DNA of 40,053 bases from Candidatus Faecaligallichristensenella faecipullorum (GTDB lineage Bacteria > Bacillota > Clostridia > Christensenellales > Aristaeellaceae), in the NCBI GenBank assembly GCA_018716505.1, contig DVJW01000101.1, positions 1 to 40,053 on the forward strand, given 5' to 3'. The notes below the pieces were generated by a model. The model was given only the letters and a program-made list of their open reading frames with translations, ran no database searches and had not been told where the DNA came from. This document shows positions 9,851 to 24,415 of the stretch, in pieces. Both the position numbers and the translations under genes were made by a program. The first letter of the stretch is position 1. The number at the start of each line of letters is the position of its first letter.

Positions 9851-10798
9851 ATGGGCGAAATGCTGGCGGTGGCGGCCGCGCTCATCCGGCGCGGAGACAG
9901 AATACTCGTGAGCCAACGGTTGACGGGCAAGCCCGATCCCTTAAAATGGGAATTTCCAGGCGGAAAGTTGGAACAGGGAGAATCACCCGAGGCCGCGCTG
10001 GAGCGCGAGCTTAGGGAAGAGTTGGGCATCGAAACCCGGACCGGGCGCTTGGTGAAGGCCTTGCGCAAACAAAGCGGCGAGCAGGATATTCTGCTGTTGT
10101 TCTATGAGAGCCGTCTGCTGAAGGGCGCACCCGAGCCGCTTCAGAGTGCGGGCCTGAGATGGGAGACGCCCGGACAGCTGCTGGAAATGGATTTGGCGGA
10201 CGCCGACCGCAGCGTTGCGCAGGCATTGGCACGGGAGGAGCATATGGAAAAGACGGGAATCTGGTTCATAACCGGAGGGGCGCGCAGCGGCAAGAGCAGT
10301 TATGCCGAACAGATTGCGCGCGGATTTGGTGACAATGTGCTCTACATCGCCACGGCCCGGGCCTTTGACGATGAAATGCGCGAGCGCATCAAAAAGCATC
10401 GGGCCCAGCGCCCCTCGGCCTGGCCCACCTATGAGGGAATAAACGGCTTTAAAGAAGCCGTGGCCGGGCGCAGCGGCGCGGTGCTGCTGGATTGCGTGAC
10501 CATCTTGATTACCAATATCATGATGGATTCGGGCGCGGATTGGGATCATCCGACCCCTGAGGATATTGAAAACGCCGAACGCACCGCCCGGAAATCGCTG
10601 GACGAGCTGCTGGACGCGGCCAAGGCCCAGGGATTGACCTTGATTTTGGTGAGCAATGAGTTGGGCATGGGATTGGTCCCGGTGTATGCCTTTGGCCGGG
10701 CCTTTCGGGACGTGGCCGGGCGGATTAACCAATATCTGGCGGGCCGGGCCGACCATGCGGTATTTATGGTGTCCGGGTTGCCCATTGAGCTCAAGTAA
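9851..10798 (+). CDS. Nudix (MutT-like) hydrolase fused to adenosylcobinamide kinase/guanylyltransferase (CobU/CobP)
   Basis: Residues ~1-130: complete Nudix box GGKLEQGESPEAALERELREELGI. Residues ~135-315: CobU P-loop FITGGARSGKSSYAE, LLDCVTILITNIM, VSNELGMGLVPVYAFGRAFRDVAGRINQYLA. Confidence 0.9.
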   Translation: MGEMLAVAAALIRRGDRILVSQRLTGKPDPLKWEFPGGKLEQGESPEAALERELREELGIETRTGRLVKALRKQSGEQDILLLFYESRLLKGAPEPLQSAGLRWETPGQLLEMDLADADRSVAQALAREEHMEKTGIWFITGGARSGKSSYAEQIARGFGDNVLYIATARAFDDEMRERIKKHRAQRPSAWPTYEGINGFKEAVAGRSGAVLLDCVTILITNIMMDSGADWDHPTPEDIENAERTARKSLDELLDAAKAQGLTLILVSNELGMGLVPVYAFGRAFRDVAGRINQYLAGRADHAVFMVSGLPIELK

Positions 10799-16237: not shown

Positions 16238-17773
16238 ATGCAGGATAAAAAGAAAAAGGGCGCACCCAAAAAGATTACCACTCCGCCTTCCGGAAAGGCC
16301 AGGGGAACGACGCGTCATTCAAGATCTCCATATGTCAAGGCGCAGCGCGCGCAAAACGCATCGGCCAAGGGCTCGGCCAAAAAGACCAGGAAAAACGATT
16401 GGTGGGCTGCCCCGGTCTCGGCGTTGATGATTTTAATTCTGGCTTCCGTGGCCTATTTCGGGCTTTCGGAGCTTAAAAACTATATGAACTTTAATCGGAT
16501 GCGCAGCATCGTGGATGATCAGCGCTTTTATTCCGGGATTACGGTGGAGGGAACGGATGTTTCCCAGATGACCTTGGATCAGGCGCTTTCTCTCTGGGCG
16601 GAGCGCGAGGAAGAGGTTAAGTCGCGCATGAATTTGACCTTGCAGTATGAGGGCCAGAGTTGGACTTTAACCAACGAACAGATTGGCTATTACAGCAATT
16701 ATGAGCAGGTGCTCAATAATGCCTATGCCATGGGCAGAAGCGGAAGCCTGGAAGAGCGCTATGCCGAGATCAACAATTTGGCCAACAATCCCCAAAGCCT
16801 GAGCATTGAGCGGGGCTACGACGAGGAAAAGCTCAGGCAGCAGTTGGAAGAGGTGGCAAGCCAGGTATCCCAGGAAGGCAGCAATGCCACTGTGGCCTCC
16901 TTTGACAGCGACACCGGAGAGTTTACCTTTAAAGAGGGCGTCACCGGGCGCGTTGTGGACGTGGATCAGCTGTTCAGCCAGGCCCAACAGGCCCTGGCTT
17001 CGGGCAGCACTCAGTTGACCATTCAGACCCAGACCGTGGAACCCACGGTCACGGTGGCTCAGCTTGAACAGGAGTACGGCAAGATCACCACCGCCACCAC
17101 CAATGCGTCCAGCTCCAGCAGCAACCGGATCACCAACATCAAGCTGGCGCTCAAGGCCATGGACGGACTGCGGCTGGATCCCGGAGAGGAATTTTCCTTT
17201 AATGAGTTGCTGGGCGAGCGCACCAAGGAAAAGGGCTATAAAGAAGCCGGCGTGATCAACAACGGCATGATGGATCAGGGCATCGGCGGCGGTATTTGCC
17301 AGGTCTCCACCACGCTGTTCAATGCGGTGGCCAAGGCTGATTTGAAGATCACCGAGCGCCATCCCCATTCCAGACCCTCCACTTATGTGGATTTGGGCAA
17401 GGATGCGGCGGTTAACTGGCCCAACCAGGATTTCTGCTTTGTCAACAATACGGATGCGCCCATCTACATCAGGGCCAAATGGACCAGCGAGAAAAAGGTC
17501 AGCATATCCATCTACGGAAAGAAACTGGCCGATGGCATGACCATCAAGATTACCTCAAAACAGACCGCCACCGTAAATCCCGGCGATCCCAAGATCACCG
17601 TGGACAGCAGCCTGCCTGAGGGCACCCGCAAGGTGGTCAGCTCCGAACGCACCGGCTATAAGGCGACCACCTACAAAGTCTATTACGACAAGGATGGCAA
17701 TGAGATTAAGCGGGTTCAGCTCTGCAAGAGCAACTATCCGGCGGCCAAGGCAGTCATTAAAGTGGGAAAGTAG
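16238..17773 (+). CDS. VanW-family protein with N-terminal TM and putative peptidoglycan-binding-like domain
   Basis: VanW core: LKAMDGLRLDPGEEFSFNELLGERTKEKGYKEAGVINNGMMDQGIGGGICQVSTTLFNAVAKADLKITERHPHSRPSTYVDLGKDAAVNWPNQDFCFVNNTDAPIYI; later G5-like tail. Confidence 0.9.
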   Translation: MQDKKKKGAPKKITTPPSGKARGTTRHSRSPYVKAQRAQNASAKGSAKKTRKNDWWAAPVSALMILILASVAYFGLSELKNYMNFNRMRSIVDDQRFYSGITVEGTDVSQMTLDQALSLWAEREEEVKSRMNLTLQYEGQSWTLTNEQIGYYSNYEQVLNNAYAMGRSGSLEERYAEINNLANNPQSLSIERGYDEEKLRQQLEEVASQVSQEGSNATVASFDSDTGEFTFKEGVTGRVVDVDQLFSQAQQALASGSTQLTIQTQTVEPTVTVAQLEQEYGKITTATTNASSSSSNRITNIKLALKAMDGLRLDPGEEFSFNELLGERTKEKGYKEAGVINNGMMDQGIGGGICQVSTTLFNAVAKADLKITERHPHSRPSTYVDLGKDAAVNWPNQDFCFVNNTDAPIYIRAKWTSEKKVSISIYGKKLADGMTIKITSKQTATVNPGDPKITVDSSLPEGTRKVVSSERTGYKATTYKVYYDKDGNEIKRVQLCKSNYPAAKAVIKVGK

Positions 17774-17832: not shown

Positions 17833-19248
17833 CTATTTGAGAGCCTCCCTGAGCAGCGCTTCAATTTTTACCGGGTTGCCCAGCCCGTTGGACCTGGCCA
17901 TGGCTTGGCCTATGAGCCCCTTGAGCGCAGCCTGCTTGCCACGCCGGTAGCTCTCCACCAGGGCGGTTGATTCCTCCAGCACCTGCCGCACAATGTCATC
18001 CAATGCGCGTTCATCGTTGATTTGCCAGAGACCCAGGCGATCCACTACCTGGCGCGGCGGCTGGCCGTCCTGCGAAATTTCCCGGAGCACCCGCTTGGCG
18101 GTGGAACTGTTGATCTCCTCCGCGGCCAACATATCCGCCAGCTGGGCCAGATCCCCGGCCTTCACCCGGATGGGTTCGGTTCCGGACAGGGGAAGCGCCT
18201 CGCTGATGAGCAGGTTGGCCATGATCCGGGGATGGGCGCAGCTTTTTGCGCCTTGTTCAAAATATTCAGCCAAACCGGCGTCCGCCGCAATGCGCCGGGC
18301 ATCCGCCGCGCTCAGCCCGTATTCTTTTACATATTGGCGTTCCCGGGCATCGGGCGAGGCGGGCAGAGTGGCGCGCAGCGCCTCAATTTCCTCGGAACCA
18401 AGCGCTATGGGCGGAAGATCCGGATCCGGGAAGTAGCGGTAGTCGTTGGCCTCTTCCTTGCCGCGCATGGAATAGGTCTTTCCGCTGGCCTGATCAAAGC
18501 GCCGGGTCTCCTGAACGATGCTTTGACCGGTCCGAACGGCCTCGACCTGCCGGGCAAATTCGTATTCGATGGCCCTGACCATCGATTGAAAGGAGTTGAG
18601 GTTTTTGATTTCGGTGCGCGTGCCCAGGCGGGTCTCGCCCACCGGACGGATGGACAGGTTGACGTCGCATCGGAGCGAGCCCTCGTTCATCCTGCAATCG
18701 GAAATCCCGGTGCTTAGAATAACCGTGCGCAGCTTTTGAAGATAAGCGCGCGCCTCCTCGGCCGAGCGCATATCCGGCTCGGAAACCACTTCGATCAGCG
18801 GAACGCCGCACCGGTTCAGGTCGATGAAGGTGCCCTTTTGTTCGTCGTGCACAAGCTTGCCCGCATCCTCCTCGATGTGAATCCGGGTGATGCCCACCTG
18901 TTTGGGGCCCGAGGCGGTTTCGATGGTCAGATAGCCGTGCTCGCAAAGGGGAAGGTCATACTGGCTGATCTGATACGCCTTGGGCAGGTCGGGATAAAAA
19001 TAGTTTTTGCGGTCCTGCCTGGAAAGGCGGGCGATTTGGCAATGGGTGGCCAGGCCGGCCTTCACCGCGTATTCCACCACTTTTTTGTTTAAAACCGGCA
19101 GCGCCCCCGGCAGGCCGGCGCAAACCGGACAGCATTGGGTATTGGGTTCGGCCCCGAAGCCGGTGGGGCAGGAGCAGAAAATCTTGGTTTCGGTTTTGAG
19201 CTCGATGTGGACTTCCAGCCCGATAATCATTTCGTATTCCGTGTTCAT
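17833..19248 (-). CDS. gatB: Asp-tRNA(Asn)/Glu-tRNA(Gln) amidotransferase subunit B
   Basis: MIIGLEVHIELKTETKIFCSCPTGFGAEPNTQCCPVCAGLPGALPVLN; GEEANDYRYFPDPDLPP; YqeY-like tail. Confidence 0.97.
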   Translation of the reverse strand: MNTEYEMIIGLEVHIELKTETKIFCSCPTGFGAEPNTQCCPVCAGLPGALPVLNKKVVEYAVKAGLATHCQIARLSRQDRKNYFYPDLPKAYQISQYDLPLCEHGYLTIETASGPKQVGITRIHIEEDAGKLVHDEQKGTFIDLNRCGVPLIEVVSEPDMRSAEEARAYLQKLRTVILSTGISDCRMNEGSLRCDVNLSIRPVGETRLGTRTEIKNLNSFQSMVRAIEYEFARQVEAVRTGQSIVQETRRFDQASGKTYSMRGKEEANDYRYFPDPDLPPIALGSEEIEALRATLPASPDARERQYVKEYGLSAADARRIAADAGLAEYFEQGAKSCAHPRIMANLLISEALPLSGTEPIRVKAGDLAQLADMLAAEEINSSTAKRVLREISQDGQPPRQVVDRLGLWQINDERALDDIVRQVLEESTALVESYRRGKQAALKGLIGQAMARSNGLGNPVKIEALLREALK

Positions 19249-20702
19249 GCCGGTTTTCCCTCCTTTTCGGATTGTTCAAAGGCATATCCGGCCCGGTAGA
19301 GCAGGGGTTCGCTGAAGGGCCGGCCGATGAGCTGCATGCCGACGGGCAGGCCGTCCGCGTCTTGGCCGCAGGGCATGGAAAGCGCGGGCACTCCGGCGAT
19401 GTTGACGGGCACGGTGAAAATGTCGCCCCTGTACATGGAGAGGGCGTCCTGGGTCTTGCTGCCGATTTTGTAGGCGGTGGTGGGCGCCACCGGGGAGAGG
19501 ATCACATCATGCTCCTCGAAAATCCGGCCGTAATCTCTCATGACCAGGGTGCGCACCTGCTGCGCTTTTTTATAGTAGGCGTCGTAGTAGCCCGAACTCA
19601 GGGCAAAGGTGCCCAACATGATGCGCCGCTTGACCTCCGGGCCAAAGCCCTCACTTCGGGAGCGCTTGTAGAGTTCCTCCATGGTTTGGCAGCCTTGGGC
19701 GCGATAGCCGTAGCGCACCCCGTCAAAGCGTGCCAGGTTGCTGGAAGCCTCGGCGGAGGAAATCACATAATAGGCGGGCAGCGCGTGTTCCAGGGCCGGC
19801 ATATCGACTTCTTCCACCGTTGCGCCCAGCTTTTCATATTTCCGCGCCGCGCTTAGCACCGCCTCCTTTACCTCGGGCGCGATTTCGCCCTCGAAGCACT
19901 GGCGGGGCAGGGCGACTTTCAGGCCGCGCACCCCCTGGCCGATGCCTAAGGTATAGTCGGGCACATCGCGCCGGACCGAGGTGGCGTCTTTGGGGTCGTG
20001 CCCGGCGATGGCGTTCAGAATGAGCGCGGAATCGTACACATCCCGGGTCAGAGGGCCGATCTGGTCCAGGGAGGAGGCGAAGGCCACCAATCCGTATCGG
20101 GAAACCGTGCCGTAGGTGGGTTTCATGCCCACCACCCCGCAGAAGGCGGCGGGTTGGCGGATGGAACCGCCGGTATCCGAGCCCAGGGCAAAGGCGGCCT
20201 CCTGGGCGGCCACCGCCGCGGCCGATCCCCCCGAGCTGCCTCCGGGCACCCGATCCAGCGCACGCGGGTTGTGCGTGACCTTGAAGAAACTGTTTTCGGT
20301 GCTGGAACCCATGGCGAATTCATCCATATTCAGCTTGCCCAACAGAACAAACCGCTGGCCGTTCAGCTTTTCCATGACCGTGGCGTCGTAGGGCGGGATA
20401 AAGTTTTCAAGCATTTTCGAGGCGCAGCTGGTGCGCACCCCCAGGGTTAAGATGTTGTCCTTGATGCCGCCCGGAACACCGGCCAGGGCGGGAAGCGCCT
20501 GTCCCGAGGCGCGCTGTTCGTCCACCGCTTTGGCCTGTTCCATGGCCAGCTCGCTGGTTACGCTGAGGTAGGCGTTTACGTCATCCTCCCTCTGCTTCAA
20601 CTGTTTCAGGTAGGCCTGGCAGACCTCCCGGGCGCTGAGGCGCTTGGTTTGCATGGCCTCCATCAATTCGCGCACGCTCATGGCGGTAATTTGCTCGCAC
20701 AT
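19245..20702 (-). CDS. gatA: Asp-tRNA(Asn)/Glu-tRNA(Gln) amidotransferase subunit A
   Basis: Amidase signature (GVPGGIKDNI, DRVPGGSSGGSAAAVAAQEAAFALGSDTGGSIRQPAAFCGVVGMKPTYGTVSRYGLVAFASSLDQIGP). Confidence 0.97.
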   Translation of the reverse strand: MCEQITAMSVRELMEAMQTKRLSAREVCQAYLKQLKQREDDVNAYLSVTSELAMEQAKAVDEQRASGQALPALAGVPGGIKDNILTLGVRTSCASKMLENFIPPYDATVMEKLNGQRFVLLGKLNMDEFAMGSSTENSFFKVTHNPRALDRVPGGSSGGSAAAVAAQEAAFALGSDTGGSIRQPAAFCGVVGMKPTYGTVSRYGLVAFASSLDQIGPLTRDVYDSALILNAIAGHDPKDATSVRRDVPDYTLGIGQGVRGLKVALPRQCFEGEIAPEVKEAVLSAARKYEKLGATVEEVDMPALEHALPAYYVISSAEASSNLARFDGVRYGYRAQGCQTMEELYKRSRSEGFGPEVKRRIMLGTFALSSGYYDAYYKKAQQVRTLVMRDYGRIFEEHDVILSPVAPTTAYKIGSKTQDALSMYRGDIFTVPVNIAGVPALSMPCGQDADGLPVGMQLIGRPFSEPLLYRAGYAFEQSEKEGKPA

Positions 20703-20715
20703 TGTATTTCCCTCC

Positions 20716-22797
20716 CTATTCCATAACTTTGGGCACGCTGATGAATGAGCCCGCTCGGGCGGGCGCGCCGCTCAGGATACGCTCGCGCTCAAAGGGCGCT
20801 TCCACCTGATCCTCGCGGAAGACGTTTCTGAGATTGGCCACATGGGTGGCCGGGGGAACATCGCCCAAATCCAGGGCGCTCAGCTGATGGGCGAAGGCGA
20901 TGATCTCCTCCATCTCGCGGGGCATGCGCTCTTTTTCCTCCTGGGTCAGGCTTAAACGGGCCAGATGCGCGATGGATCCCACATCCCAGGGATCTTTTTT
21001 CTCCTTATCCGCCTTGGGCGTTTGAATGGAAACGGATTGCCCGCGATCCAGATTCAGGGCCTTGAGTTGGGCCTCGTCCACCGGACTGGGGGCCGAGGTC
21101 ATGGGGCAGGAGGCGTCCCCGGCCTTGGGGAAGGCGATGACGTCCCTGAGCGACTCCGCGCCCAGCATCAGCATGACCAGCCGGTCCAGCCCAAAGGCAA
21201 AGCCGCCGTGGGGCGGGGTTCCGTAGCGGAAGGCGTTGACCATGAAGCCAAAGCGCTGCTGAATCTGCTCCTCGCTGAAGCCCAGCGCCTGAAACATTTT
21301 TTGTTGAATATCGCTTCGGTGGATGCGGATGGATCCGCTGCCCAGCTCCACCCCGTTGAGCACCACGTCATAGGCCTGGGCGCGCACCCGCTCCGGATCG
21401 GTGAAAAGATAGGGGAGATCCTCGGGATAGGGCATGGTAAAGGGATGGTGCATGGCCAGATAGCGGTGTTCCTCCTGACTGTACTCAAACTGCGGAAAAT
21501 CCGTCACGATCAGGAAGCGGTAGTCATCCTTGCGCCGGAGGTTCAGCATGTCTCCCAGGGCCAGCCGCAGCCCGCCCAGGGTCCGGCGCACCGTGGAAAG
21601 GCTGTCGGCGCAAAAGAGGATGAAGTCGCCCGCCTGCGCGTCCATGCGCCGGAGCAATGCCCGCATTTCCTCGTCGGTGAAGTACTTGGTGAGTACCGAG
21701 TAGAGGCTTCCGTCTTCGCGGATGGCGATCCAGGCCATGCCCTTGGCGCCCAACTCCATGGCGCGGCTGGTTAATTCCTCAATCTGGGTCCGGCTGAACT
21801 GGGCGCAGCCCTTGGCGTTGATGGCGCGCACCACGCCGCCCGAGCGGACCGCCTTTTGAAAAACCGAAAAGCCGCATTGGGCCATCAGGCCGGTCAAGTC
21901 CACAATGGGCAGCTCAAAGCGGAGGTCGGGTTTGTCGCTGCCATACACATCCATGGCGGTCTTCCAGCTCATGCGGGGGAAGGGCTTTTCAAATTCCAGG
22001 CCCTTGACCTCCCGGAAGATATGCTTAAACAGCTTTTCCAGGTGGTTCATCATATCCTCCTGGTCGATAAAGGACATCTCCATATCCACCTGAGTGAATT
22101 CGGGCTGCCGGTCGGCGCGTAAATCTTCGTCCCGAAAGCACCGGGCGACCTGATAATATTTGTCGATTCCGCCCACCATCAGCAGCTGCTTAAAGATTTG
22201 GGGCGATTGGGGCAGGGCGTAAAAGCTGCCCGGATGCACCCGGCTGGGCACCAGGTAATCCCGCGCGCCCTCCGGGGTGGAGCGGGTGAGCATGGGCGTT
22301 TCCACCAGGATAAATCCAGCCTCATCCAGAAAGTTTTGAACCGCGCGCTGGACCCGATGGCGGTAGCGCAGGTTTTCCAGCATGCGCGGCCTGCGCAGAT
22401 CCAGAAAGCGATATTTGAGGCGCAGATCCTCCCGGGCCAATTCGCCCTCCTCCAAAGAAAAGGGCAGGGCATCGGCCGTGGACAGCAGCTCGATTTTATC
22501 CACCTTGAGCTCGATGAGCCCGGTTTTGAGCTTGGGATTTACGGTTTCTGGATCGCGCAGCCGGATCTCGCCCGTGGCCGCGATCACCGATTGATTTTTC
22601 ATGCCCTCGGCCAAGATAAAATCCGATTCCGTAAGGTGGCGCGCGTCGCAGACCAGCTGAAGGACGCCCTCCCGGTCGCGCAGATCCAGAAAGATGACCC
22701 CGCCCATATCGCGCTTGGTCTGCACCCATCCGGCCACACACGCCCGCCTCCCGGTGTCCTCCAAAGTCAAAAGGCCGCAGTAATCCGTTCGCTTCAT
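20716..22797 (-). CDS. aspS-gatC: Fusion protein: aspartyl-tRNA synthetase (N-terminal) with amidotransferase subunit GatC (C-terminal)
   Basis: Bacterial-type AspRS with GAD domain (VAGWVQTKRDMGGVIFLDLRDREG, TPEGARDYLVPSR, FRDEDLRADRQPEFTQVDMEMSF, GGFAFGLDRLVMLMLGAESLRDVIAFPK) running without a stop into a GatC domain (IAHLARLSLTQEEKERMPREMEEIIAFAHQLSALDLGDVPPATHVANLRNVFREDQVEAPFERERILSGAPARAGSFISVPKVME). Start ATG 22797 with SD gggagg; the ORF extension to 22860 lies in the leader. Confidence 0.93.
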   Translation of the reverse strand: MKRTDYCGLLTLEDTGRRACVAGWVQTKRDMGGVIFLDLRDREGVLQLVCDARHLTESDFILAEGMKNQSVIAATGEIRLRDPETVNPKLKTGLIELKVDKIELLSTADALPFSLEEGELAREDLRLKYRFLDLRRPRMLENLRYRHRVQRAVQNFLDEAGFILVETPMLTRSTPEGARDYLVPSRVHPGSFYALPQSPQIFKQLLMVGGIDKYYQVARCFRDEDLRADRQPEFTQVDMEMSFIDQEDMMNHLEKLFKHIFREVKGLEFEKPFPRMSWKTAMDVYGSDKPDLRFELPIVDLTGLMAQCGFSVFQKAVRSGGVVRAINAKGCAQFSRTQIEELTSRAMELGAKGMAWIAIREDGSLYSVLTKYFTDEEMRALLRRMDAQAGDFILFCADSLSTVRRTLGGLRLALGDMLNLRRKDDYRFLIVTDFPQFEYSQEEHRYLAMHHPFTMPYPEDLPYLFTDPERVRAQAYDVVLNGVELGSGSIRIHRSDIQQKMFQALGFSEEQIQQRFGFMVNAFRYGTPPHGGFAFGLDRLVMLMLGAESLRDVIAFPKAGDASCPMTSAPSPVDEAQLKALNLDRGQSVSIQTPKADKEKKDPWDVGSIAHLARLSLTQEEKERMPREMEEIIAFAHQLSALDLGDVPPATHVANLRNVFREDQVEAPFERERILSGAPARAGSFISVPKVME

Positions 22798-22836: not shown

Positions 22837-22882
22837 AAAAAAGAGCCCCTCATCCCTCAAATAACAGGGACGAAAGGCTCTT
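22837..22882 (-). terminator. T-box regulated intrinsic terminator
   Basis: Minus strand aagagcctttcgtccct-gttattt-gagggatgaggggctctttttt. Confidence 0.88.
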
Positions 22883-23137
22883 GAAAGCTCTCCGCGGTAC
22901 CACCCAAATAGACAGTTGCTGTCCGCTCACCAGGCACTCGGATCATGATCCGGTTATGCCCTGCGGCTTTAACGCGCCGCCCGCGGCTAAGCCTACTTGC
23001 GCAAGCGCTTTGGGTTAGCGGCTCCGGGATGTTCTTCGTTCAGGAATCCGTACCGCATTCACACCACCTAGCGGCTCTCTGAAACTACCAACCTGAATTA
23101 CTCTTCCCATCGTGGCCTTTATTGGCTCGATCAATTT
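22837..23137 (-). promoter_or_regulatory. T-box riboswitch leader controlling aspS::gatC-gatA-gatB
   Basis: Minus strand: stem I (AGAGAGCC...GGTGGTGTGAA...GAACATCCCGGAGCCGC), T-box GGTGGTACCGCGG (plus 22892-22904) and terminator 22837-22882 just before the aspS SD. Confidence 0.93.
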
Positions 23138-23172: not shown

Positions 23173-23269
23173 GAAAATTTTATAAGAAAAAACAAAAAAA
23201 TCGGAGATTTGGAACGAATTCGCCATCCATTGGGTCTGAATGGTAAACGGATGGAAGGGGGAATTTTTG

Positions 23270-24415
23270 ATGAAAAAAGTGAGCGTTTTGCTGATGATGG
23301 CGCTGATTTGTTGGACCCTGGCGCCCGCACCGCCGGGAAAGGCCGAGCCGTCCGGCGATGCGCTGTGGGCGATGGTCCTGGAAGAGACTTTGAAGGAGAA
23401 AGATCAGGCGCTTATATCGCCCATCAGCCTGGAAGTTGCGCTGAAAATGGCCGCCCAGGGCGCGAAAGGCGAAACCTTGGATGAAATGCTCAAGGCCTTG
23501 GGGGAAAGCGAGCCGGATTTGGAGAAGATGGGCGAGCGGCTGAAGGAGCTGAAACAGGCGGGCGTGGTCAGCGCCAGCGGGCTGTATACTGGCCCCGGCG
23601 TGACCTTGGAGGACGCCTATCTGAGCGCCCTGGAGCAGGCGCTGGACGCCCGATACTTTACCCAACAGGGGGAGGCGTTAAAGCCGGCCCTGGACGAGTG
23701 GATCAGCGAGGCCACCCAGGGATTGATCAAAAAATATCCCTTTGAAATTGATTTGGGGCAGGGCGAGAGCCAGTGGATGGTGGTGCTGCTCAATGCCCTG
23801 AGCCTGAAGGCCAAATGGGAAAAACCTTTTGTTGAGGCGGAAAACGGGGTTTTTCACGGGCCGGATGGGGATGTGGAAGTGCCCATGCTGAATCAGACCA
23901 CGGATTACGCCTATCAGCAGATGGAGGACGGCACCCAATGCGTATACCTGCCCTATGAATCGGGCGATTTGGGCATGACGCTGCTGTTGCCCGGGGAGGA
24001 CGGGCTGGAGGCGTTGGTGAAGCGCCTCAGAGAGGATCCCTCGCCCTATTTAAAAACCGCCGCCCAGCCCACCTGCGCGGTGTCGCTCACCATGCCCACC
24101 CTGGATCTGAGCGTGGAAAACAGCTTAAAACAAACGCTGAAGGCGGTTATGCCCATATCCTTCAGCAATTTGGCGGATTTTGGCGGCATGAGCGCAGAAA
24201 GCAAGCTCGGGATTGGGGATGTGCAGCAAAATGTGCGGCTCAAGGTGGATGAGATGGGCACCGAGGCCGCGGCGGCTACCGCGGTCGTTTTAAGCCCGAT
24301 GAGCGCGGTGTTGAGTTCCGTCGAGGTGTGCGCCGACCGCCCCTATGCCTTTATGATCAGCGATCCGGCGGGAGAAAATATCCTGTTTGCGGGGGCGATT
24401 CGTACGCCCGCATAG
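23270..24415 (+). CDS. Secreted serpin (serine protease inhibitor, I4 family)
   Basis: N-terminal signal-like segment MKKVSVLLMMALICWTLAPAPPGKA; ISPISLEVALKMAAQGAKGETLDEM; hinge DEMGTEAAAATAV; C-terminal RPYAFMISDPAGENILFAGAI. Confidence 0.93.
   Translation: MKKVSVLLMMALICWTLAPAPPGKAEPSGDALWAMVLEETLKEKDQALISPISLEVALKMAAQGAKGETLDEMLKALGESEPDLEKMGERLKELKQAGVVSASGLYTGPGVTLEDAYLSALEQALDARYFTQQGEALKPALDEWISEATQGLIKKYPFEIDLGQGESQWMVVLLNALSLKAKWEKPFVEAENGVFHGPDGDVEVPMLNQTTDYAYQQMEDGTQCVYLPYESGDLGMTLLLPGEDGLEALVKRLREDPSPYLKTAAQPTCAVSLTMPTLDLSVENSLKQTLKAVMPISFSNLADFGGMSAESKLGIGDVQQNVRLKVDEMGTEAAAATAVVLSPMSAVLSSVEVCADRPYAFMISDPAGENILFAGAIRTPA

What the first reader, a model, noticed from the sequence alone, without database searches (positions are those of the whole stretch)
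20716..22797. AspRS covalently fused to GatC, followed by gatA and gatB: a possible hard-wired transamidosome
Seen: one uninterrupted minus-strand frame carries a full bacterial AspRS (catalytic and GAD motifs) followed, after a short Lys/Asp-rich linker (SIQTPKADKEKKDPWDVG), by a complete GatC domain. No separate gatC lies next to gatA, and no well-placed SD plus start occurs at the junction. Established: GatC is normally a small free subunit, and non-discriminating AspRS with GatCAB makes Asn-tRNA(Asn) by transamidation, in some bacteria through a ribonucleoprotein transamidosome. Inference: the fusion tethers the synthetase to the amidotransferase, coupling Asp-tRNA(Asn) formation to its amidation. 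Such fusions may already be present in automated annotation of related genomes, but I know of no biochemical study of one.
Basis: partly seen in the sequence, partly recalled or inferred. Interest (0 to 1): 0.8.

Follow-up and report, generated by a model that had tools for sequence, protein, structure and literature searches.

The report
AspRS–GatC fusion under Asn T-box
In some uncultured gut-type Clostridia, the enzyme that loads aspartate onto a tRNA is fused to a subunit of the enzyme that turns that aspartate into asparagine, behind an RNA switch that appears to sense asparagine tRNA, so this looks like a dedicated, physically tethered asparagine-making unit; the tethering is real and conserved, its benefit is untested.

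Summary
Window 22797–20716 (−) is one uninterrupted 693-aa frame: a complete bacterial AspRS (1–584) followed by a complete GatC (605–693), then gatA and gatB. It is not an assembly accident: the same fusion, always followed by gatA–gatB, was read in 21 loci from at least 11 family-level groups, including a single-contig genome. Their AspRS parts form one clade (SH-aLRT 100) and the GatC part is under purifying selection. First, a T-box leader (22863–23122) precedes the gene, with Asn specifier AAC (not Asp GAC/GAU), conserved in all 16 fusion operons that have a T-box. Second, this genome also carries a separate AspRS, AsnRS, GlnRS and U1–A72 tRNA-Asn, so the fusion is probably not its housekeeping AspRS. 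A relative in the same family has the unfused equivalent: T-box(AAC)–non-discriminating-type AspRS–gatC–gatA–gatB. Best explanation: a dedicated Asp-tRNA(Asn)-forming AspRS tethered to GatCAB, induced by uncharged tRNA-Asn, as in the C. acetobutylicum T-box operon but covalently joined. Relaxed tRNA specificity and channelling are inferred. AspRS–GatC fusions are already named in NCBIfam (PRK12820), but this clade falls far below that model. New variant of a known kind.

The parts
22863..23122 (-). T-box leader (RF00230), Stem I to antiterminator
   Evidence: cmscan 100.7 bits, gathering 93
23031..23033 (-). Specifier triplet AAC (Asn codon) in GAAGAACA; overlaps GAA (Glu codon) by two bases
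   Evidence: read in the specifier-loop columns of the cmscan alignment; GAAC invariant in 16 fusion leaders; control hisS-aspS leader of Fictibacillus (L055) reads GAC in the same columns
22837..22880 (-). Intrinsic terminator of the T-box (GAGCC...TCCCT...AGGGA...GGCTC then T run)
   Evidence: read directly in the sequence; not tested with a terminator tool
20716..22797 (-). AspRS-GatC fusion gene, 693 aa, ATG with AAGGGAGG about 10 nt upstream
21046..22797 (-). AspRS part (residues 1-584; OB-fold, catalytic core with GAD insertion)
20716..20985 (-). GatC part (residues 605-693)
   Evidence: TIGR00135 72.5 bits over 605-693; PF02686 62 bits over 617-688
19245..20702 (-). gatA, starts 13 nt after the fusion's stop
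   Evidence: TIGR00132 635 bits, cut-off 481
17833..19248 (-). gatB, overlaps the gatA stop by 4 nt
   Evidence: TIGR00133 542 bits, cut-off 315

Best explanation
A three-gene operon for tRNA-dependent asparagine synthesis. Uncharged tRNA-Asn binds the T-box leader (AAC specifier) and lets transcription run into aspS::gatC-gatA-gatB. The fused AspRS aspartylates tRNA-Asn, and the GatC domain, tethered to it by a roughly 20-residue linker, nucleates GatA and GatB into an amidotransferase that amidates the Asp-tRNA(Asn) on the spot. Housekeeping Asp-tRNA(Asp) is made by the other, unfused AspRS; AsnRS is used when free asparagine is available. Shown here: the operon, the fusion, its conservation and single clade, the T-box and its specifier, the second AspRS and AsnRS, the GatCAB-competent tRNA-Asn. 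Inferred: relaxed tRNA specificity of the fused AspRS, assembly with GatA/GatB as a fusion, channelling.
For: Intact domains and operon. Only one GatC and one GatB found in the genome. T-box with Asn specifier in the window; GAAC invariant in 16 of 16 T-box-bearing fusion leaders from at least 10 families, with a GAC-reading control; no T-box hit on the partner AspRS and AsnRS loci tested. All 8 fusion genomes of the order carry further class IIb synthetases including a second AspRS; typed fully in the own genome: archaeal-type AspRS, AsnRS, LysRS. GlnRS is present, so GatCAB is not needed for Gln. No AsnA and no canonical AsnB found in the own genome. tRNA-Asn has U1-A72 in four fusion genomes, tRNA-Asp has G1-C72; U1-A72 is the bacterial GatCAB identity element (PMC4206432). 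In G035, same family, a T-box(AAC) drives unfused archaeal-type AspRS-gatC-gatA-gatB, and that AspRS has His/Pro where T. thermophilus AspRS2 has His/Pro; the own genome's unfused archaeal AspRS has Glu/Lys. Fused AspRS: one clade, SH-aLRT 100, with Met at the position of P. aeruginosa His31 where 5 of 6 unfused bacterial-type partners have Leu. GatC dN/dS about 0.06-0.24.
Against: Non-discrimination is not shown: Met at position 31 is neither the Leu of discriminating nor the His of proteobacterial non-discriminating enzymes. Five of 21 fusion operons (all family f216) have no T-box. Some fusion genomes also carry asnA (shown in G562; similar weak hits in G627 and G033), so asparagine need cannot be the only driver there. 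The genome is a MAG, 84% complete, so absences are soft. The AlphaFold model was poor in the GatC part (pLDDT under 50 over 632-693) and says nothing on assembly.
Confidence: 0.8

Rival explanations
1. The fused AspRS is the discriminating, ordinary AspRS, and the archaeal-type AspRS elsewhere in the genome is the non-discriminating one (as in Thermus and Deinococcus); the GatC fusion is incidental and GatCAB takes substrate from the other enzyme.
For: In Thermus/Deinococcus the archaeal-type second AspRS is the non-discriminating one (PMC4206432); NCBIfam names the C121 protein 'aspartate--tRNA(Asn) ligase'.
Against: The fused gene, not the archaeal-type one, has the Asn T-box. The C121 enzyme has Glu/Lys where T. 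thermophilus AspRS2 and the T-box-driven G035 enzyme have His/Pro. In most other fusion genomes the second AspRS is an ordinary bacterial one.
Confidence: 0.1
2. The chain is made as a fusion but separated (proteolysis at the Lys/Asp-rich linker, or internal initiation), so free AspRS and free GatC are the working forms and there is no tether.
For: Linker is variable and charged. One relative (SIG502) has an in-frame GTG with GGAGG 5 nt upstream just before GatC.
Against: No well-placed internal start is conserved across ten fusions. The fusion has been kept across at least 11 families while the linker sequence drifts, with no recognisable conserved cleavage motif.
Confidence: 0.12
3. The operon serves Gln-tRNA(Gln) or general GatCAB supply, with AspRS fused only for co-expression.
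For: GatCAB also amidates Glu-tRNA(Gln); the specifier GAAC overlaps a Glu codon GAA, and the C. acetobutylicum T-box senses both tRNA-Asn and tRNA-Glu (PMC4052509).
Against: The genome has GlnRS and GluRS; no bacterium was known in 2014 to encode both Gln routes (PMC4206432). An AspRS does not supply Glu-tRNA(Gln) by established knowledge.
Confidence: 0.05
4. Assembly or sequencing artefact (lost stop or frameshift at the junction).
For: The window is from a 236-contig MAG.
Against: Same fusion in 21 separately read loci, including a one-contig genome (G033), with GatC under purifying selection.
Confidence: 0.01

Closest known systems
C. acetobutylicum T-box-controlled transamidation operon (Saad 2012, 2013; described in PMC4052509, cited in PMC4206432; primary papers not held here)
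   Same: T-box senses tRNA-Asn through an Asn codon overlapping a Glu codon and controls the tRNA-dependent transamidation pathway; further aspS copies in the genome (three aspS, one with a T-box: PMC2494555)
   Different: There AspRS and GatC are, to my knowledge, separate chains; here they are one
NCBIfam NF009460 / PRK12820 bifunctional AspRS/GatC
   Same: Same domain order AspRS-GatC in one chain, similar length (723 positions)
   Different: Window scores 648 bits against a cut-off of 1379, no better than unfused AspRS (616-725 bits); so a different, probably independent fusion clade
Asn-transamidosomes of T. thermophilus (PDB 3kfu) and P. aeruginosa (PDB 4wj3)
   Same: AspRS and GatCAB acting on tRNA-Asn together
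   Different: Those are non-covalent assemblies; here one link is a peptide chain, and complex formation is not demonstrated
Deinococcus/Thermus AspRS2 + GatCAB asparagine route
   Same: Extra AspRS beside AsnRS and GlnRS, with GatCAB; no asparagine synthetase found
   Different: The extra AspRS there is archaeal-type and unfused; here the bacterial-type one is fused
M. smegmatis gatC-gatA fusion mutant (PMC7541841)
   Same: GatC tolerated as part of a longer chain
   Different: Laboratory mutant, GatC joined to GatA, causes mistranslation; AspRS not involved

Membership tests
NCBIfam PRK12820 (NF009460) AspRS/GatC | Score at or above the curated cut-off (1379 bits) | tested here: not met
   648.5 bits; other fused members 608-658, unfused AspRS 616-725
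Bacterial AspRS (TIGR00459 / PRK00476) | Score above curated cut-off with catalytic and GAD domains | tested here: met
   753.4 bits (cut-off 374), 808.8 bits (cut-off 443); GAD 78 bits
GatC (TIGR00135 / PF02686) | Score above curated cut-off over the full model | tested here: met
   72.5 bits (47.1), positions 5-93 of 93; 62.1 bits (23)
T-box-controlled tRNA-dependent Asn operon (C. acetobutylicum type) | T-box leader with Asn specifier upstream | tested here: met
   100.7 bits; AAC at 23033-23031
T-box-controlled tRNA-dependent Asn operon (C. acetobutylicum type) | AspRS with gatC, gatA, gatB in the same operon, second AspRS and AsnRS elsewhere | tested here: met
T-box-controlled tRNA-dependent Asn operon (C. 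acetobutylicum type) | Leader responds to uncharged tRNA-Asn | not testable with these tools
   needs a transcription assay
Non-discriminating AspRS | Aspartylates tRNA-Asn | not testable with these tools
   needs a charging assay
Non-discriminating AspRS | Known sequence signature (His31 in P. aeruginosa type; recalled from memory) | tested here: inconclusive
   Met at this position in all 21 fused enzymes read; 5 of 6 unfused bacterial-type AspRS from fusion genomes have Leu, the sixth is very divergent
GatCAB tRNA-Asn substrate | tRNA-Asn with U1-A72 | tested here: met
   own genome C214 and three relatives; rule from PMC4206432
Asn-transamidosome | Complex of AspRS, GatCAB and tRNA-Asn | not testable with these tools
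   AlphaFold of the fusion alone was low-confidence in GatC; no multimer prediction available

The most novel reading that the evidence does not exclude
A covalent transamidosome: an AspRS dimer carrying two GatC domains that permanently anchors two GatAB units, giving a fixed 1:1 complex that hands Asp-tRNA(Asn) directly from synthesis to amidation, switched on by a T-box that reads both tRNA-Asn and tRNA-Glu.
Probability: 0.4. Interest if true: 0.72.

Novelty: new variant of a known kind. Interest (0 to 1): 0.55.

Why it matters
Transamidosomes are hard to study because the complexes can be transient or depend on tRNA. A natural AspRS–GatC chain fixes the stoichiometry and gives a ready construct for testing whether tethering protects the proteome from Asp-for-Asn errors. 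It also suggests, from operon and riboswitch evidence, that some Clostridia keep a dedicated second AspRS for making asparagine on tRNA beside AsnRS, so annotating the gene simply as aspS would miss its role.

Tried and rejected
Artefact: rejected (21 loci). Member of PRK12820: rejected by cut-off. Separate gatC initiated inside the fusion: no conserved site. Gln-tRNA role: GlnRS present. First tRNA pattern search used a wrong gap length and found no tRNA-Asn, redone. The phylum search with PF02686 lists only the best scores and so could not reveal fusions. AlphaFold with 10 sequences gave mean pLDDT 69 and a poor GatC part; no fold search was run on it. The 529-aa Asn_synthase-like protein on C148 matches the synthase domain only in part and has no N-terminal amidotransferase match, so was not counted as AsnB. 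Primary papers on the C. acetobutylicum operon are not in the library.

Full report
Observation. Window 20716–22797 on the minus strand is one open frame of 693 residues. Residues 1–584 match bacterial AspRS (808.8 bits, cut-off 443) with OB-fold, class II core and GAD; residues 605–693 match GatC (72.5 bits, cut-off 47.1). gatA starts 13 nt downstream and gatB overlaps gatA by 4 nt. The genome (a MAG, 2.93 Mb, 236 contigs, 84% complete) has one GatC hit, this one, and one GatB. At the junction no start codon with a normally spaced Shine-Dalgarno precedes the GatC domain, and none is conserved across ten fusions.

Not an artefact, and how widespread. A search with four fusion proteins in 396 genomes of the order found 8 fusions, scoring above 1160 bits against 868 for the best unfused AspRS. 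In 391 genomes sampled across the class it found the own genome and 13 more, one of them cut by a contig end. I read 21 loci; each has gatA and gatB next to it. They belong to at least 11 family-level groups, but the fusion is patchy: in the window's own family only the window's genome has it among those sampled. The AspRS parts form one clade with SH-aLRT 100, in quick trees without bootstrap. Pairwise dN/dS for the GatC part is about 0.06 to 0.24 (Nei-Gojobori, synonymous changes partly saturated, run stopped before the last two pairs).

The leader. Rfam finds a T-box at 22863–23122, directly upstream. In the specifier loop the sequence is GAA-G-AAC-A. Sixteen of the 21 fusion operons carry a T-box (11 above the Rfam gathering score, 5 by motif only), and in all sixteen the string GAAC is unchanged while the bases after it vary. 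Triplets that never vary are GAA (Glu) and AAC (Asn); Asp codons do not occur there. As a control, the hisS–aspS leader of Fictibacillus reads GAC (Asp) in the same columns; two other Bacillus-type leaders there have an extra base and are ambiguous. The five operons without a T-box all belong to family f216. The overlap GAA/AAC recalls the two-codon T-box of C. acetobutylicum that senses tRNA-Asn and tRNA-Glu and controls the transamidation operon (PMC4052509). A survey found that T-box specifiers upstream of tRNA ligases always matched the ligase's amino acid (PMC2494555), so an Asn specifier in front of an AspRS points to Asn as the product.

The genomic setting. The own genome has an archaeal-type AspRS (C121), AsnRS (C156) and LysRS (C49), GluRS and GlnRS. 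No AsnA hit appeared, and the one sizeable Asn_synthase match is not a canonical AsnB. G562 carries asnA next to asnS. tRNA-Asn with U1–A72 was found in the own genome, G033, G562 and G574; tRNA-Asp has G1–C72. U1–A72 is what bacterial GatCAB recognises (PMC4206432).

The unfused equivalent. G035, in the window's family, has a T-box (72 bits, below gathering but E 1e-15) with AAC, then an archaeal-type AspRS, gatC, gatA, gatB as separate genes. That AspRS has His and Pro at the positions aligned with T. kodakarensis W26 and K85, as T. thermophilus AspRS2 does; the own genome's unfused archaeal AspRS has Glu and Lys. That these positions separate the two classes is from memory (published work on discriminating and non-discriminating AspRS). 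So the T-box slot holds a non-discriminating-type enzyme in G035 and the fusion in the window.

tRNA specificity of the fused enzyme. All fused sequences read have Met where P. aeruginosa AspRS has His31 and E. coli and T. thermophilus AspRS1 have Leu; 5 of 6 unfused bacterial-type partners have Leu. None of about 75 other AspRS in the comparison has Met there. This is a clade signature, not proof of relaxed specificity.

Mechanism and limits. Established: the pathway (ND-AspRS then GatCAB) and the T-box logic. Shown here: operon, fusion, conservation, specifier, partner genes. Inferred: non-discrimination, assembly of the fused GatC with GatA and GatB, and any channelling. The AlphaFold model, from ten sequences, did not resolve the GatC part.

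Novelty. NCBIfam already names AspRS/GatC bifunctional proteins (PRK12820), but the window scores 648 bits against 1379, no better than unfused AspRS. The library searches found no biochemical study of an AspRS–GatC fusion; the library lacks most subscription papers. I rate it a new variant of a known kind.

Noticed in passing
L021 6626-11482 (G035, same family): Unfused counterpart: T-box with AAC specifier, archaeal-type AspRS with His/Pro non-discriminating-type residues, gatC, gatA, gatB; the genome has two further AspRS-like genes
   Followed up: partly
L174, L176, L178, L185, L032 (family f216): Fusion operons without a T-box leader, apparently lost in this family
   Followed up: no
L022 7937-8500, L024 4593-5132, L025 8148-8732: GatC open frames with about 95 extra N-terminal residues of no Pfam family (two tested); may be real extensions or wrong starts
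   Followed up: partly
L038 2890-3119 and L061 2885-3122: hisS-aspS T-box leaders of Bacillus-type genomes with GAAUGAACAC in the specifier loop, where AAC (Asn) and CAC (His) overlap
   Followed up: no
window 23240-24415 (+): Bacterial serpin (PF00079, 201.6 bits), divergent to the T-box operon
   Followed up: no
window 9851-10798 (+): NUDIX domain fused to CobU (cobinamide kinase/guanylyltransferase)
   Followed up: no
window 16238-17773 (+): VanW-like protein convergent with gatB (67 bits, far below the NCBIfam vanW cut-off of 365)
   Followed up: no
L125 (G583): Second AspRS on a very long branch, possibly degenerate or a contaminant
   Followed up: no
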